IMG/VR virus record: IMGVR_UViG_3300005882_000544 | Span: 1-45,345 of that record | Direction: 5' to 3' (one strand) | Source: a virus | Length of the DNA stretch: 45,345 nucleotides | Shown here: piece after piece, positions 1 through 5,603 of the stretch | Layout: every line of letters starts with the position of its first letter | How positions within the stretch are numbered: position 1 is the stretch's first letter | Position numbers and translations under genes: made by a program | Notes under the pieces: generated by a model | Database searches by the model: none | Seen by the model: the letters and a program-made list of their open reading frames with translations, nothing else | What the model was told of the DNA's origin: nothing

Positions 1-468
1 TTAGTACCTCTTACATATATGCTCAGGAAAGATGCTAGTGGTATCATTGCATATTTTATTTCCAACCAAATAGGTGTTTGATAATACATAGTCTTTCAAG
101 CAGTCGTTGTTTTCTAGTAACAAATAGGATTGAGGAGCAACAAAATTAGGTACATTTTTGCGTAGAGAGTCTAAGGGGATAGGCTGTATCTCTTGAAAAG
201 CGATTATTTCTGCACCATACCTATATGAATCAATATGAGTATCAATTCTTTTTTGTATATTTGCATCATTTGAGTATTCGATTTTCCAATCTTCAAGTGA
301 ATGAATTTTTCCAAAATAAATGATTCCACATATAGCTTTTACAGGCTTACTAACATACATATATGCCATTTTACAATCATTAGGAAAGCGTCTACGATAC
401 TCTATTATTTTATTTTGAGATTTTATTTTTTTATAAATACTTGGCCAAAAGCTCATTACTGGGGTCAT
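1..468 (-). CDS. ASCH/PUA-like small protein, last gene of the defence operon
   Basis: A 155-residue protein on the minus strand whose stop codon lies at the left window edge. I chose ATG at 468 over the upstream GTG at 477 because GAGGTG lies about 7 nt before 468. The pattern near residues 20-55 (EYRRRFPN, then KMAYMYVSKPVKAICGII) is what I associate with ASCH/EVE-type PUA-fold domains, which bind RNA or modified nucleotides; a second conserved-looking block is FVAPQSYLLLENN near residue 110. No membrane segment or signal peptide is seen. It follows the helicase gene by about 50 nt on the same strand, so co-transcription is likely. The family call is by eye; a role in defence is inferred only from position. 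Confidence 0.6.
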   Translation of the reverse strand: MTPVMSFWPSIYKKIKSQNKIIEYRRRFPNDCKMAYMYVSKPVKAICGIIYFGKIHSLEDWKIEYSNDANIQKRIDTHIDSYRYGAEIIAFQEIQPIPLDSLRKNVPNFVAPQSYLLLENNDCLKDYVLSNTYLVGNKICNDTTSIFPEHICKRY

Positions 469-519
469 TAAGTTCACCTCTTTAATTTAGTTTAATGTTT
501 AAGACATTTTCAGGTTCTA

Positions 520-3132
520 TTATTCTATAAATAATTCAGGAACATTAAATTGAATGTCCTTTGCCTCTGTCTCAACACCTAAGTTGCCACACTCGAAGAT
601 GGAACGGTGGATTTTTATAACACCATTTTCTTCAATAAGGTACTTGGCACGATTTTTAGATTCCTCTATAAATGTTGAAACTTCTCTAGAAAACCCGTTT
701 TGCTGCAAAAATATAGTCAGTGGATTGGTGGTTCCGTATTCAACGTATTCATACCAGTCATTTGTAAAATGATTATTAACAACTTGTTCTGGATGAAGAT
801 TCATATATTCCAGAGAAAACTTTCTGAAATAATTCGAAATGCTGAATAAAAGAACATTTTCAATAACACCTAATGTTTCAGCAATAACATAATTCTTATG
901 CATCTTATCATTTTTATCATAAAATTCTGCATATTTTGTTTTGCCAACCCAAACACCAGTGTAAGGGTTCTTTTCCTTGTAATCGATGGCGTGGTAAATA
1001 ATTTGACTTAAACCATTTCCACGAATCCAGCGAAGTAAAATAACAGCATACCATCTAAGTACAGCATCAGATTTACCAATGGTTTCTCTTTCGTAAATAT
1101 TCCATTTGAAAACACGTTTTAACATCTTTAAAAATTCAATCAGTTCATCAAAGTCTACTTCATCATTTTCTCCCTTTAACTCAGGATATTTTGCACCACT
1201 GAGAATTGCATCATGTAAATTTGATGCCTGATCGTAGGAGAAAGTAATGTCATCGTTGGTTTTAGCTAATGGGAACTGCTGCAATATTTGATTTTCTTTT
1301 GCTTGTGTAATGTATTTAGAAAAGATATCTTTTACAGGAGAATCTACTCCAAGTGCAATATCCCTTGTATATATAAGTGCAAATTTTCTCATTGCATCAT
1401 ATTCTTTTCCTGTTGCATTTGTTAAGCAATCAGTTAATTCAATATCTCCATCTGCAAGACTTTCTATAACAGATTGGATTTGCTTAGTGTTTTCTGTCAG
1501 GTTTATTGATAATTCTTGTGGAGGAACATCTCGTTTTAATAATGATATATAGCGGTCTTCTTTAAGGGTATCATTTTCACGTATTAAGAATACATTTCCA
1601 TATAGGTTATATTTAATTCGACCAACACGCCCGATAAGGTTTCGGAATTCCACTTCATCCATATTAGCAGGACCATCTCGGTAGCTTGTGATAAACAAAT
1701 TATCAGCAGGGAGATTTACACCTTCTACCAATGTACTTGTACAAAAAATTGTACGAATAATGCCATCTTCAAAAGCTTTTTCTATGCGAAGACGAATATT
1801 AGCAGGAAGATACCCAACATGATATGCAACACCTTTAGTAATCAAATCGGCTAGGTAACAATCATTATGTACTTCTTGACGTATTTCTTTAGCCAAGGTT
1901 TGCAATTTTGCATCATCTGATGGATTTAATGATTTTGCATAAGCCACAGCGTAGGTTATAACTTTTTGTCTTGAACTACAATAAATGATATTTTGCTTTA
2001 TCTGTCCAACGCAAGTGATAATATCACTTAATGTATAATTGCATGGTATATTTTCCAAAAATGATAATGTTTTTGTATAATCATTGTGTTGATATATTTT
2101 ATTTGATGGAACATCAATAAAATATTTAAATTGGCATACAGGTGCATATTTTGATGCTAATTTTTTTATTTGTTCTGGTTGTATTCCTGGTATCAAGTTC
2201 AAATATACTTCAGGATTTGGTATGTTAGGAGATGCAAATACAATAGTAGGTCTCTGTTCTAAACGTAATAACTGAGAGATAACTTTATAATAATACGTAC
2301 TCCTTCCACCACGAAGTGATATTTTATGTGCCTCATCAATGAATAAAAAATCAATCTTTACCTTTGGCATTCCAATAAGAACATGAAGAAGTCTTTCAGG
2401 TGTCATGACAAAAATAAAGTGATGGTCTTGTTGTAAGACCAAATCTCCAGCAGCACTTACAACTCGGTAATTGGTCTCATTGAGTTTTGTTTGCAGGTCT
2501 TTGAAAAGACTGCTTCTGACTTCATTGATAAGTGCTTTTGTTGGAACTAGAACTGCATAATTTTTGCTGGATCCATTCTCAATTTGCTGTGTAATATAAG
2601 TTTGTACTACAAAAGATTTACCCATCGAAGTGGGACCAGAATAACTGAAGTATTGATAATTCAAACCATCATATACAGTTTTTTGGTCTCGGAAAAAATA
2701 CTCATCTTCTTTTCCTGGAATAAGTAATGCGTCTTTATCAAAAGAATAATACAATCGGTCTAGGATATCAGCACTTTGAAAATTACCAACTGATGGTGAT
2801 TTTAGACCTCTATAATTACCTACAGAAGATAAGACAGCACCTAGATAATGTTTAATGGTTTTGTTATCTGGATAAATCAAGTTTAAGAGGATAGCAATTT
2901 CCTGTCCCCATAATTTATATTTGTCTGCGTTTTCAACATTTGCAGCCTTGGAAAGGATATCTGCAAATCTTACAGCATGTGTTATATTTAATTCCTGTAA
3001 TGGTGTATCAATGTCAAATAAGCAAATAGAATAATTGTGCAAGAGAGAAGCATATATCTCCTGTAAATATTCATTGCAGTCTATATTACGATACAACTCT
3101 TCAGCAAGAGTACCGTTTCGTGGCAATTGCAT
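520..3132 (-). CDS. hamB: HamB-like DEAH superfamily 2 helicase of a Hachiman-type system
   Basis: An 870-residue helicase. Visible motifs in order are Walker A GPTSMGKS (about 166-173), DEAH box FIDEAHK (about 264-270), motif III-like FASPNIP (about 299-305), motif V region TSTLVEGVNLPA (about 465-476) and motif VI LIGRVGRIK (about 499-507). Length and motif set fit HamB, the ATP-driven helicase that partners HamA in Hachiman anti-phage defence. ATG at 3132 lies one nucleotide after the HamA stop and has GGGAGGG upstream, so translation is probably coupled. HamB is known to sense and move along DNA and to control HamA. Nothing appears truncated and all ATPase motifs are intact. Other Ski2-like or DEAD-box defence helicases are possible, but the HamA-like partner favours HamB. 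Confidence 0.85.
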   Translation of the reverse strand: MQLPRNGTLAEELYRNIDCNEYLQEIYASLLHNYSICLFDIDTPLQELNITHAVRFADILSKAANVENADKYKLWGQEIAILLNLIYPDNKTIKHYLGAVLSSVGNYRGLKSPSVGNFQSADILDRLYYSFDKDALLIPGKEDEYFFRDQKTVYDGLNYQYFSYSGPTSMGKSFVVQTYITQQIENGSSKNYAVLVPTKALINEVRSSLFKDLQTKLNETNYRVVSAAGDLVLQQDHHFIFVMTPERLLHVLIGMPKVKIDFLFIDEAHKISLRGGRSTYYYKVISQLLRLEQRPTIVFASPNIPNPEVYLNLIPGIQPEQIKKLASKYAPVCQFKYFIDVPSNKIYQHNDYTKTLSFLENIPCNYTLSDIITCVGQIKQNIIYCSSRQKVITYAVAYAKSLNPSDDAKLQTLAKEIRQEVHNDCYLADLITKGVAYHVGYLPANIRLRIEKAFEDGIIRTIFCTSTLVEGVNLPADNLFITSYRDGPANMDEVEFRNLIGRVGRIKYNLYGNVFLIRENDTLKEDRYISLLKRDVPPQELSINLTENTKQIQSVIESLADGDIELTDCLTNATGKEYDAMRKFALIYTRDIALGVDSPVKDIFSKYITQAKENQILQQFPLAKTNDDITFSYDQASNLHDAILSGAKYPELKGENDEVDFDELIEFLKMLKRVFKWNIYERETIGKSDAVLRWYAVILLRWIRGNGLSQIIYHAIDYKEKNPYTGVWVGKTKYAEFYDKNDKMHKNYVIAETLGVIENVLLFSISNYFRKFSLEYMNLHPEQVVNNHFTNDWYEYVEYGTTNPLTIFLQQNGFSREVSTFIEESKNRAKYLIEENGVIKIHRSIFECGNLGVETEAKDIQFNVPELFIE

Positions 3133-3133
3133 A

Positions 3134-4594
3134 TTAGTACCCTCCCGTCATTTCATCTATTAAATTTGTTCTCTCGTTTGGGGCATCGTTGAATGGAACG
3201 ATATAAAAATAAAAACTGTATCCCTCAAAAGAATTTGACTGTATTTGGCTTAAGATATAGGGCTCTATTGCCATAATGTCTTGTTGTAATTGTGTTTTTA
3301 CAGCATCTCGGAACTGGTTATTGTTCATTCCGGTTGGGTCAATGTTCATAGTGTATCCAAGAAATATTCCAAAGGACATATCAGGAACATTTGAATCAGT
3401 TTTCTGAGGAATAAGCAGTGAAAGCATATAATTCGTTGTTTCTTTGTCATAAATGCTGTTATGAGTTGTATTTTCAATCATCTGTAGTTCAGAGGTGCTA
3501 TTAGATTCAATGGATTTTATTCTATTGAAAGCACGGTCAACAGCGGTTTGCATATCTCCCACAATATTAGAAGCACCAAAAACAAGCTGGTGATATGGAA
3601 TACCAGAACTATTATCAGAAAGAAGATGAACTCCGTCACTTTTACTGACAACATCTCCACCTATATCATTTATTTCAATTTTACTCATTATCTTAGGGGC
3701 ATCTAATTCTTGTTCTAAAAAAATATAAAGCAACATTTCTCCAAGAACGGCATCAGCGTTTGTGGAGTATGCTCGTAAAAATTTTATAAGAGCCTGAGAA
3801 CCTGCTGCCATAGCTTTCTTTGATTTTTCGGATTCAGCTATCTTGGCTCGTGAAAGAACATAACTACCAATATTATCAAGAAGATAACTTTTTAAATCCT
3901 TAAATGCAAATTTGAAATTATTTATATTTGTGCTATAAATTTGTGCTGTTGTAGGATTTGATAAACCAATAATCTGGGTAGATGATACTTGCCGAAAGAC
4001 ACGACCAAAGTTAGGGTCATTCAATGTTTTCTGTAAAGGCCTAATCTCATCGGGTGTCTTGTTTTCAAAGTGAATTTCATCAGAGCCATTTTCGTACTTT
4101 TTAATTATGTTTTTATCAAGTGTTCTAATATCATTTGCACATGGTTGATTAGCAACTTCAACAATTGCAAAACGAAATACTGAAGATAAAAGACCAGCAA
4201 AATTAAAGGTAGAAGAATTGAGAATATTACTCTTTTCATATCCTGCGATGTACCCAATGACTGTTGAATCTATAATGTTTGAATCGTCTTTAAGAATATC
4301 TTTTATGGCACGAACAATTGCAAAGCGATAAGAATCTTTTACCAAAGGGACAACCGATTCTTGAAACTTTTTTTGCACATCGTTGAAATTACTGTTACGT
4401 GCTGCCTTAATAACATCTGGTGGAACATTATCATGTCCATTTTTTAGATGGCCTGGTAACGAACTGTCACGTAATTCAGTTGAATCTGCACCGAAGGCAC
4501 AAAATATAGCATCACATAATATTGGGTTTGTTACTTTTTGTGCTTTGGCCTGATACAAAATCGTAAAAAGAGTACCGAAACAGAGTCGTTTCAT
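3134..4594 (-). CDS. hamA: HamA-like (DUF1837) protein with long N-terminal extension
   Basis: A 486-residue protein; ATG at 4594 is preferred to GTG at 4606 because GGTGG sits 8 nt before it. The C-terminal third looks like the HamA/DUF1837 nuclease-like domain: GEMLLYIFLEQELDAPKI (about 285-302), KSDGVHLL (about 318-325) and QLVFGASN (about 336-343), then an alternating helical region. Classical HamA is roughly 250-300 residues, so residues 1-280 are an extra domain that I cannot name; it begins MKRLCFGTLF and contains NVPPDVI near 56-62. At the place where HamA proteins usually carry the ExK catalytic pair, this sequence reads FGASN, so nuclease activity is doubtful. It lies between the XRE gene and the helicase in one operon. 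Confidence 0.78.
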   Translation of the reverse strand: MKRLCFGTLFTILYQAKAQKVTNPILCDAIFCAFGADSTELRDSSLPGHLKNGHDNVPPDVIKAARNSNFNDVQKKFQESVVPLVKDSYRFAIVRAIKDILKDDSNIIDSTVIGYIAGYEKSNILNSSTFNFAGLLSSVFRFAIVEVANQPCANDIRTLDKNIIKKYENGSDEIHFENKTPDEIRPLQKTLNDPNFGRVFRQVSSTQIIGLSNPTTAQIYSTNINNFKFAFKDLKSYLLDNIGSYVLSRAKIAESEKSKKAMAAGSQALIKFLRAYSTNADAVLGEMLLYIFLEQELDAPKIMSKIEINDIGGDVVSKSDGVHLLSDNSSGIPYHQLVFGASNIVGDMQTAVDRAFNRIKSIESNSTSELQMIENTTHNSIYDKETTNYMLSLLIPQKTDSNVPDMSFGIFLGYTMNIDPTGMNNNQFRDAVKTQLQQDIMAIEPYILSQIQSNSFEGYSFYFYIVPFNDAPNERTNLIDEMTGGY

Positions 4595-4623
4595 CCTTAT
4601 GACCACCTTTCTGTTACTATTAT

Positions 4624-4824
4624 CTATAAAATAATGTCAACGATATCTCCAATGTTGCATTGAAGTGCAGTACATATTTTCCCGAGAACTTCCATGCTAA
4701 CAGGTTGATTTTTACCCATTTTAGCCATAGTAGAAGAAGTGATTCCAGCTTTGGCCATAAGGTCTTTTTTTAACATGCTTTTATCTATCAATATTTTCCA
4801 TAGTTTATTGTAGCTGAATTGCAT
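4624..4824 (-). CDS. Small Cro/C1-family (XRE, YozG-like) regulator
   Basis: A 66-residue protein that is almost entirely one helix-turn-helix: a helix near residues 17-24 (MLKKDLMAK), a recognition helix around AGITSSTMAKMGKN, then EVLGKICTALQCNIGDIVDI. Single-domain XRE proteins of this sort are common at the head of restriction and defence operons. GGAGGG lies 8 nt before the ATG on the minus strand. The HamA-like gene starts about 30 nt downstream, so this is the first gene of the operon and probably its autoregulator. It is too small, and too tightly placed with the defence genes, to be assumed the prophage CI repressor, though that alternative cannot be excluded. Confidence 0.85.
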   Translation of the reverse strand: MQFSYNKLWKILIDKSMLKKDLMAKAGITSSTMAKMGKNQPVSMEVLGKICTALQCNIGDIVDIIL

Positions 4825-5183: not shown

Positions 5184-5324
5184 ATGTCAAAGAATTTAAA
5201 ACAAACTTCAAAAGCTGTGGCTACTAAAGCAAGTAAAGTTTTGAGAGATGGACGTTACAGCAATACATCAAAGTCTGTAGCTGGAAGTGCATTATCACAA
5301 ACAAGACCAGGAAAGAAAAAGTAG
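5184..5324 (+). CDS. Small basic conserved phage/ICE protein (46 aa)
   Basis: ATG at 5184 is preceded by a perfect AAGGAGG about 8 nt upstream. The product starts MSKNLKQTSKAVATKASKV, has a central LRDGRYSNTSKSVAGSALSQ, and ends with GKKK. It is rich in Lys, Ser, Thr and Ala, has no membrane segment and no recognisable domain. I recall near-identical small proteins near the early end of Clostridia integrative elements, always without function. Its DNA- or RNA-binding nature is only suggested by charge. It is the first plus-strand gene of the element. Confidence 0.75.
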   Translation: MSKNLKQTSKAVATKASKVLRDGRYSNTSKSVAGSALSQTRPGKKK

Positions 5325-5603
5325 TCTGGTAAAAAGTGGTGTGGTGCGTGATTGGATAATCAACCCACACCTTCCCAAAAGGGAAATCAATAAACAAACA
5401 ATATCACAGGCCTGATTAGCTATAGGGTACTGGGATACAGATATCGAAACCATCGCAGCAATTGCTGTTGTGACAGGTGCGATTGAAGTACCCTTATTTT
5501 CCTATACCTTTTTCAGGTAAAGTAGGTCGGTACTTCAACAGTGCCGACCTTTATTTGTATCCCAGCCCTCTGCGAGAACCAGGCGGAAAGGCTAGGGAAA
5601 TTA
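5325..5603 (+). promoter_or_regulatory. Structured leader upstream of the sigma-like gene
   Basis: A long untranslated-looking stretch with several inverted repeats. GGGTAC (5425-5430) can pair with GTACCC (5488-5493). CTGGGATAC (5430-5438) can pair with GTATCCCAG (5557-5565), and this crosses the first pairing. AGGTCGG (5524-5530) pairs with CCGACCT (5544-5550) over a 13-nt loop. Two short open stretches without good starts are also present: 5416-5520 (reading ...ETIAAIAVVTGAIEVPLF) and 5477-5629 from a GTG (reading ...RYFNSADLYLYPSP). They may be remnants or leader peptides. Confidence 0.4.

What the first reader, a model, noticed from the sequence alone, without database searches (positions are those of the whole stretch)
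1..4824. Four-gene Hachiman-type operon: XRE regulator, extended HamA, HamB, ASCH-like protein
The order XRE, HamA-like, HamB-like, ASCH-like is tight (one-nucleotide hamA-hamB spacing) and transcribed away from the phage genes. Classical Hachiman is described as hamA plus hamB. The extra regulator and PUA-fold gene suggest an enlarged version with its own control and possibly a nucleotide or RNA sensor.
Basis: partly seen in the sequence, partly recalled or inferred. Interest (0 to 1): 0.68.

Follow-up and report, generated by a model that had tools for sequence, protein, structure and literature searches.

The report
Hachiman variant with a swappable effector

Summary
The four ORFs are real and co-directional: XRE (4824-4624), HamA (4594-3134), HamB (3132-520) and ASCH (477-1). 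The window is a virus record that ends on the ASCH stop codon. The reading 'Hachiman enlarged by ASCH' is not supported. All six close ASCH relatives found (56-65% identity) sit beside restriction-modification (RM) genes; in five a C5 methyltransferase starts exactly 3 nt downstream. [quoted passage not shown] ASCH probably starts an RM operon cut off by the record edge. (1) HamA belongs to a clade in which the nuclease motif GExK is lost in 21/21 members (retained, some degenerate, in 16/16 outsiders). (2) HamAB of this clade sits with type I, II, III or LlaJI RM genes in 14/17 informative loci, against 2/15 for other Hachiman and 11/50 for the same phage slot without hamAB. (3) HamA's ~190-residue N-terminus is a portable all-helical domain without a PDB match, also fused to two ABC-3C (Lamassu-like) C-terminal domains and to NACHT; TIR replaces it in related HamAs. 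Best reading: an RM-coupled, effector-swapped Hachiman variant. Nothing was tested experimentally.

The parts
4624..4824 (-). Small XRE/Cro-type regulator (66 aa, HTH_26), first gene of the cassette
   Evidence: PF13443 1.1e-18; 74% identical to the XRE before hamAB in L027 and 71% to the XRE before an ABC-3C cassette in L177
3134..4594 (-). HamA fusion protein, 486 aa from the conserved ATG (the mechanical ORF starts at GTG 4606): N-terminal domain plus catalytically degenerate HamA domain
   Evidence: PF08878 8.3e-44 at residues 236-472; PADLOC PDLC00164; clade of 21
4001..4594 (-). N-terminal portable domain of HamA (residues 1-198), all-alpha, presumed effector; invariant Cys5 and Asp104, Lys121 in 19 of 20
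   Evidence: AF2 pLDDT 88.1, pTM 0.87; no PDB or BFVD match; fused to ABC-3C CTD11/CTD6 and NACHT elsewhere
3191..3901 (-). HamA (DUF1837) domain, predicted catalytically dead, HamB-binding adaptor
   Evidence: PF08878 match residues 236-472
3566..3580 (-). FGASN at the place of the canonical GExK motif (Glu to Ala, Lys to Asn)
   Evidence: alignment of 37 HamA proteins
520..3132 (-). HamB, 870-aa Ski2-like SF2 helicase, presumed DNA-damage/DNA-end sensor; Walker A GPTSMGKS and DEAH present in the sequence
   Evidence: PDLC00190 E=0; closest solved complex 9wh1_B (partner of AbpA) 4e-71 and HamB 8vx9_B
1..477 (-). ASCH-domain protein (158 aa; conserved ATG at 468), probably first gene of an RM operon truncated by the record edge; not a Hachiman component
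   Evidence: 5gus/5guq profile match; all six close relatives adjoin RM genes
5184..5325 (+). Small basic conserved ORF at the border between the defence slot and the phage core
   Evidence: homologous small ORF in L054 11433-11603; DNA matches at 5199-5327 in Streptococcus phage Javan630 and Clostridioides phage phiC2
5541..6227 (+). Sigma-like factor, first large phage-core gene beside the slot (context)
   Evidence: Sigma70_r4 1.4e-09; from 5400 on 95-96.5% identical to Terrisporobacter phage TPDSL_ph1

Best explanation
The locus is a prophage-borne defence cassette: a small XRE regulator, then an effector-swapped Hachiman (an N-terminal helical effector fused to a nuclease-dead HamA, plus the HamB helicase), then what is most likely a type II RM operon beginning with ASCH and continuing past the record edge. 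Proposed mechanism: HamB patrols DNA and is triggered by DNA ends or ssDNA, such as those made by restriction of invading phage DNA or by damage. It then releases or rearranges the dead HamA domain, which acts only as an adaptor and unleashes the fused N-terminal domain to stop infected cells. The RM system is the first line, HamAB the abortive backup. Shown here by sequence: the parts, loss of the HamA motif across the clade, RM adjacency, portability of the N-terminal domain. Inferred: that the N-terminal domain is toxic, that RM products trigger HamB, and that the ASCH operon holds a methyltransferase and nuclease.
For: GExK lost in 21/21 clade members, retained (including GQAK, MEAK, FEAK variants) in 16/16 others. 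HamB tree: clade 100/100; RM-coupled label clustered, 0 of 500 shuffles as low. RM genes contiguous with hamAB in 14/17 informative clade loci, of types I, II, III and LlaJI/McrBC, against 2/15 randomly drawn other Hachiman loci (Fisher p=1.2e-4) and 11/50 same-slot phages without hamAB (p=1.6e-5). L054/L056 (type I) and L055 (type III) have 83-88% identical HamB, so the RM partner was exchanged while coupling persisted. N-terminal domain also fused to ABC-3C CTD11, CTD6 and NACHT, positions where effectors sit in LmuA (PMC10586767); replaced by TIR in L029/L030 HamA. HamB as end/ssDNA sensor and HamA as effector: PMC12278908. Nuclease-dead HamA in fusion systems: PMC12278908 (AbpA), PMC12799240.
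Against: All clade loci come from a few related phage families and mostly share an integration slot, so some RM linkage may be cassette shuffling in a hotspot; the 14 loci are not fully independent (LlaJI group, L029/L030, L067/L068). Three informative loci lack contiguous RM genes (L028, L058; L003 is IS-disrupted). Short HamAs without the N-terminal domain (L010, L028, L067, L068) are also motif-dead, so they must act through another partner or differently. The MTase/REase beside the window's ASCH has not been seen.
Confidence: 0.68

Rival explanations
1. Enlarged Hachiman: ASCH is a dedicated nucleotide/RNA sensor or accessory of HamAB.
For: Co-directional, 42 nt (from the conserved ATG about 51 nt) after HamB; ASCH/PUA folds bind modified nucleic acids (PMC7641849) and ZmASCH is an RNase (PMC5615036).
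Against: 0 of 6 close ASCH relatives adjoin hamAB; all 6 adjoin RM genes, five with the same 3-nt junction to a C5 MTase. No other locus of the clade has a stand-alone ASCH beside hamAB.
Confidence: 0.07
2. Pure hotspot effect: the phage slot collects unrelated defence cassettes (Hachiman, ABC-3C, NACHT, RM) and their adjacency has no functional meaning; HamAB acts alone.
For: The slot is variable: sister phage TPDSL_ph1 has other genes there, including ASCH plus two C5 MTases; L014 has ASCH-RM without hamAB.
Against: Same slot without hamAB holds RM in only 11/50 loci; RM-hamAB gaps are operon-like; RM type changes while coupling stays.
Confidence: 0.22
3. The N-terminal domain is not an effector but an adaptor or regulator that docks the sensor to the RM complex or to the XRE repressor.
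For: The N-terminal domain co-occurs with the same small XRE and with RM genes regardless of sensor type in most cassettes; it is all-helical with only a few invariant polar residues.
Against: It occupies the effector position in ABC-3C LmuA-like proteins and is replaced by TIR in HamA relatives. If adaptor, those systems would lack any recognisable effector.
Confidence: 0.2
4. Ordinary Hachiman in which the HamA nuclease still works through a rearranged active site.
For: SDGVHLL...FGAS is strongly conserved; PD-(D/E)xK sites can migrate (general knowledge).
Against: The motif Glu and Lys are replaced in 21/21 members; in the studied Hachiman, E138A/K140A abolished defence (PMC12278908).
Confidence: 0.08

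Closest known systems
Hachiman HamAB (ECOR31 type; PDB 8vx9; PMC12278908)
   Same: HamA-domain gene followed by a HamB Ski2-like helicase in a tight operon
   Different: HamA here has lost GExK, carries an extra N-terminal domain, and the clade is RM-coupled
AbpAB (PDB 9wh1; PMC10732053, PMC12278908)
   Same: Best sequence match among solved structures; N-terminal fusion to a nuclease-dead HamA domain plus helicase
   Different: AbpA's N-terminus is described as Cap4-like nuclease; here it is an all-helical domain without a PDB match
HamMAB protease-HamA fusions (PMC12799240)
   Same: Degenerate HamA motif, effector function moved to a fused N-terminal domain
   Different: No trypsin-like domain and no MBL nuclease gene here; L049 in the background set looks like the HamMAB kind
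Hachiman type II with HamC (PMC8565338)
   Same: hamAB plus one extra gene
   Different: HamC is DUF3223; the extra gene here is ASCH, whose relatives belong to RM operons
ABC-3C / Lamassu systems (PMC10586767)
   Same: The same N-terminal domain is fused to ABC-3C CTD11 or CTD6 proteins in L160, L177-L181, L184-L186, with small XRE (in the CTD11 cassettes) and RM genes
   Different: Sensor is an SMC-like ATPase, not HamB
LlaMI-type RM operons with a leading ASCH gene (L005, L006, L008, L012, L014)
   Same: 59-65% identical ASCH, directly before a C5 MTase
   Different: No hamAB; in the window the MTase side lies beyond the record edge

Membership tests
Hachiman (classical nuclease HamAB) | HamA (DUF1837/PF08878) domain | tested here: met
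   8.3e-44 at residues 236-472
Hachiman (classical nuclease HamAB) | HamB Ski2-like helicase directly downstream | tested here: met
   PDLC00190 E=0, 1-nt gap
Hachiman (classical nuclease HamAB) | D-GExK nuclease motif in HamA | tested here: not met
   Glu and Lys replaced (FGASN); lost in 21/21 clade members
Hachiman (classical nuclease HamAB) | Protection against phage | not testable with these tools
   needs cloning
AbpAB-like Hachiman fusion variant | N-terminal extension fused to nuclease-dead HamA, plus helicase | tested here: met
AbpAB proper | Cap4-like endonuclease N-terminus | tested here: not met
   All-alpha model (pLDDT 88), no PDB fold match at E<=0.001; sequence match to AbpA only in the HamA part
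HamMAB | Trypsin-like domain fused to HamA and MBL nuclease gene upstream | tested here: not met
   no protease family hit; upstream gene is XRE
Hachiman type II (PADLOC) | HamC, DUF3223 | tested here: not met
   ORF 1-477 has no DUF3223 hit
PDC-M11 (PADLOC candidate) | PDC-M11B together with its partner gene(s) | tested here: inconclusive
   B component hit 4e-10; no partner seen, edge of record
Type II RM operon with ASCH leader | C5 MTase and REase directly after ASCH | not testable with these tools
   record ends at the ASCH stop codon; no overlapping contig found

The most novel reading that the evidence does not exclude
The HamA N-terminus is a previously undescribed portable effector domain of new fold, shared by Hachiman, two kinds of ABC-3C/Lamassu and NACHT systems. 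In this phage family these sensors are functionally wired behind RM systems, so that restriction products trigger an abortive second line of defence.
Probability: 0.35. Interest if true: 0.8.

Novelty: new variant of a known kind. Interest (0 to 1): 0.58.

Why it matters
If right, one phage slot shows interchange of three parts of immunity: sensor (HamB, ABC-3C ATPase, NACHT), effector (new helical domain or TIR) and primary RM system. That would make it directly testable whether RM-cut DNA is the physiological trigger of Hachiman-type genome-integrity sensors, and would add a new effector domain to look for elsewhere. It also shows how the edge of a viral contig can create a false 'new component' of a defence system.

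Tried and rejected
ASCH as Hachiman component: rejected from neighbour data. Finding the DNA beyond the left edge: two exact DNA patterns from the window (in ASCH and in XRE) found no other viral contig; kin genomes could not be drawn because G000 is a virus record. Identifying the N-terminal domain: no Pfam hit, no PDB or BFVD fold match, no plasmid match, only HamA in viral contigs; resolved in part by phage records and genome searches. The full-length HamA model was poor (pLDDT 73.5, pTM 0.52) and was not used. L021's upstream ORF only weakly resembles LlaJI (7.7e-5), so it was left out of the RM count. Promoter-like sites were not above shuffles (22 against 27 expected). L007, an ASCH hit over 30 residues, was discarded as a chance match inside a phage structural-type gene.

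Full report
OBSERVATION. The minus-strand ORFs are real. XRE 4824-4624 is HTH_26; HamA carries PF08878; HamB matches PADLOC PDLC00190 at E=0; the 158-aa ORF has no Pfam hit but matches PADLOC PDC-M11B, and a profile of it and its relatives matches the Zymomonas ASCH structures 5gus/5guq at about 8e-10. HamA and HamB are 1 nt apart, XRE and HamA 29 nt from the conserved ATG, HamB and ASCH 42 nt. The window is an IMG/VR virus record whose first base is the last base of the ASCH stop codon, so what follows ASCH is unknown.

ASCH. Close relatives were sought in viral contigs, plasmids and genomes. At 56-65% identity there are six: L005, L006, L008, L012, L013, L014. In L005, L006, L008, L012 and L014 the ASCH stop is followed after exactly 3 nt by a gene for a C5 DNA methyltransferase (Pfam-confirmed for L005, L008, L012 and L014) and then a LlaMI-type nuclease (Pfam-confirmed for L005, L008 and L014). 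L013 has an MvaI/BcnI-like nuclease and a methyltransferase-like gene nearby (by similarity and inspection). In L002 an ASCH domain (30%) is fused to a C5 methyltransferase. The sister phage TPDSL_ph1 (96.5% identical to the window over 19 kb of phage core) has a 36% ASCH followed by two C5 methyltransferases in the same slot. None of these stand-alone ASCH genes adjoins hamAB. The ASCH gene therefore most likely opens an RM operon. In general ASCH/EVE proteins are known RM and modified-base companions (PMC7641849).

HAMA IS DEAD. Twenty-one relatives including the window carry FGAS, CGAS, FGTS or FGKS where canonical HamA has GExK, while 16 other HamA proteins, most of them drawn from 400 genomes, keep GESK, GEAK, GEVK, GEGK, GQAK, MEAK or FEAK. 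The sister-clade protein in L033 still reads FGESK. In the studied Hachiman this motif (E138/K140) is required for defence (PMC12278908). Loss is typical of fusion systems: AbpA (PMC12278908) and protease-HamA (PMC12799240). Among solved structures the closest are AbpA and its helicase partner, 9wh1.

RM COUPLING. In the window's clade (HamB tree, 19 rows, support 100/100) hamAB adjoins RM genes in 14 of 17 informative loci: LlaJI/McrBC-type (L002, L011, L063), type II (L004, L062), type III (L010, L027, L055), type I (L029, L030, L054, L056, L067, L068); not in L028 and L058, nor in L003, which is broken by an IS. Censored by contig ends or unclear: window, L021, L064, L066. Background: 2 of 15 other Hachiman loci (L040, L048), two more with RM genes nearby (L045, L047); Fisher p=1.2e-4, or 2e-3 counting the near ones. 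Against the same phage slot without hamAB: 11 of 50, p=1.6e-5. These p-values ignore relatedness. L054 and L056 (type I) and L055 (type III) share 83-88% HamB identity, so partner types have changed recently while coupling stayed. L027 has the window's own order: phage core, XRE, HamA, HamB, then RM (type III Mod, a transposase, Res).

N-TERMINAL DOMAIN. Residues 1-198 were predicted with confidence (pLDDT 88.1, pTM 0.87) as all-helical, without any PDB or viral fold match. The domain recurs fused to ABC-3C CTD11 (L160, L177, L181 Pfam-confirmed; L178, L179, L180, L185 by close similarity), ABC-3C CTD6 (L184, L186) and NACHT (L182 with SNaCT14, L183). Type III (with CTD11) or type I (with CTD6) RM genes lie downstream in the ABC-3C cassettes, which mostly lie beside the same kind of phage core; a small XRE precedes the CTD11 ones. 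Cys5 and Asp104 are invariant in 20 aligned copies, Lys121 in 19. In L029 and L030 a TIR domain replaces it in HamA (L029 Pfam-confirmed). In Lamassu/ABC-3C the N-terminal part of LmuA is regarded as the effector and the C-terminal part as docking (PMC10586767); hence the effector reading. This is inference, not proof.

MECHANISM AND CAVEATS. HamB is an end/ssDNA-activated sensor in the studied system (PMC12278908). A nuclease-dead HamA with a swapped effector, next to an RM system that makes ends, suggests a layered defence: restriction first, abortive effector second. Hotspot shuffling remains a serious rival. Short dead HamAs without the domain (L010, L028, L067, L068) need another effector, perhaps the RM enzyme or neighbours such as the GmrSD-like gene in L067. 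Literature search was limited to open-access papers; PMC12799240 mentions other HamA fusions each arising once in a supplementary figure that could not be read, so part of this may be listed there. No paper found describes the RM coupling or the shared domain.

Noticed in passing
L160, L177-L181, L185: ABC-3C (CTD11) cassettes with small XRE, the window's HamA N-terminal domain, MC7-like small protein, DUF2326 ATPase and a type III-like methyltransferase, most beside a phage core like the window's; L160 also has a Macro-domain gene downstream.
   Followed up: partly
L182 5243-8218, L183 72-2096: The same N-terminal domain fused to NACHT NTPases (L182 with SNaCT14), beside similar phage-core genes.
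   Followed up: partly
L029 7433-8920, L030 10109-11614: TIR-HamA fusions between type I RM genes and hamB, with an NBR1-Ig-like protein gene upstream and a DUF4357 gene downstream of hamB.
   Followed up: partly
L054 5904-6146, L056 7422-7643, L063 13405-13629: A PC4-like (presumed ssDNA-binding) small protein encoded between the RM genes and HamA or near them (Pfam-confirmed in L054 only).
   Followed up: no
window 5184-5325: Small conserved basic ORF at the border of the defence slot; similar ORF in L054 and similar DNA in phages Javan630 and phiC2.
   Followed up: no
L159 (PP197246.1 22000-42000): Sister phage TPDSL_ph1 carries in the same slot a PADLOC candidate helicase (PDC-S53), an LmuA-like protein, ASCH and two C5 methyltransferases: alternative contents of the hotspot.
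   Followed up: partly
L058 15806-17101: Protein with a weak Shedu-type nuclease C-terminus downstream of hamAB; a possible modification-dependent restriction enzyme in a locus counted as RM-negative.
   Followed up: no
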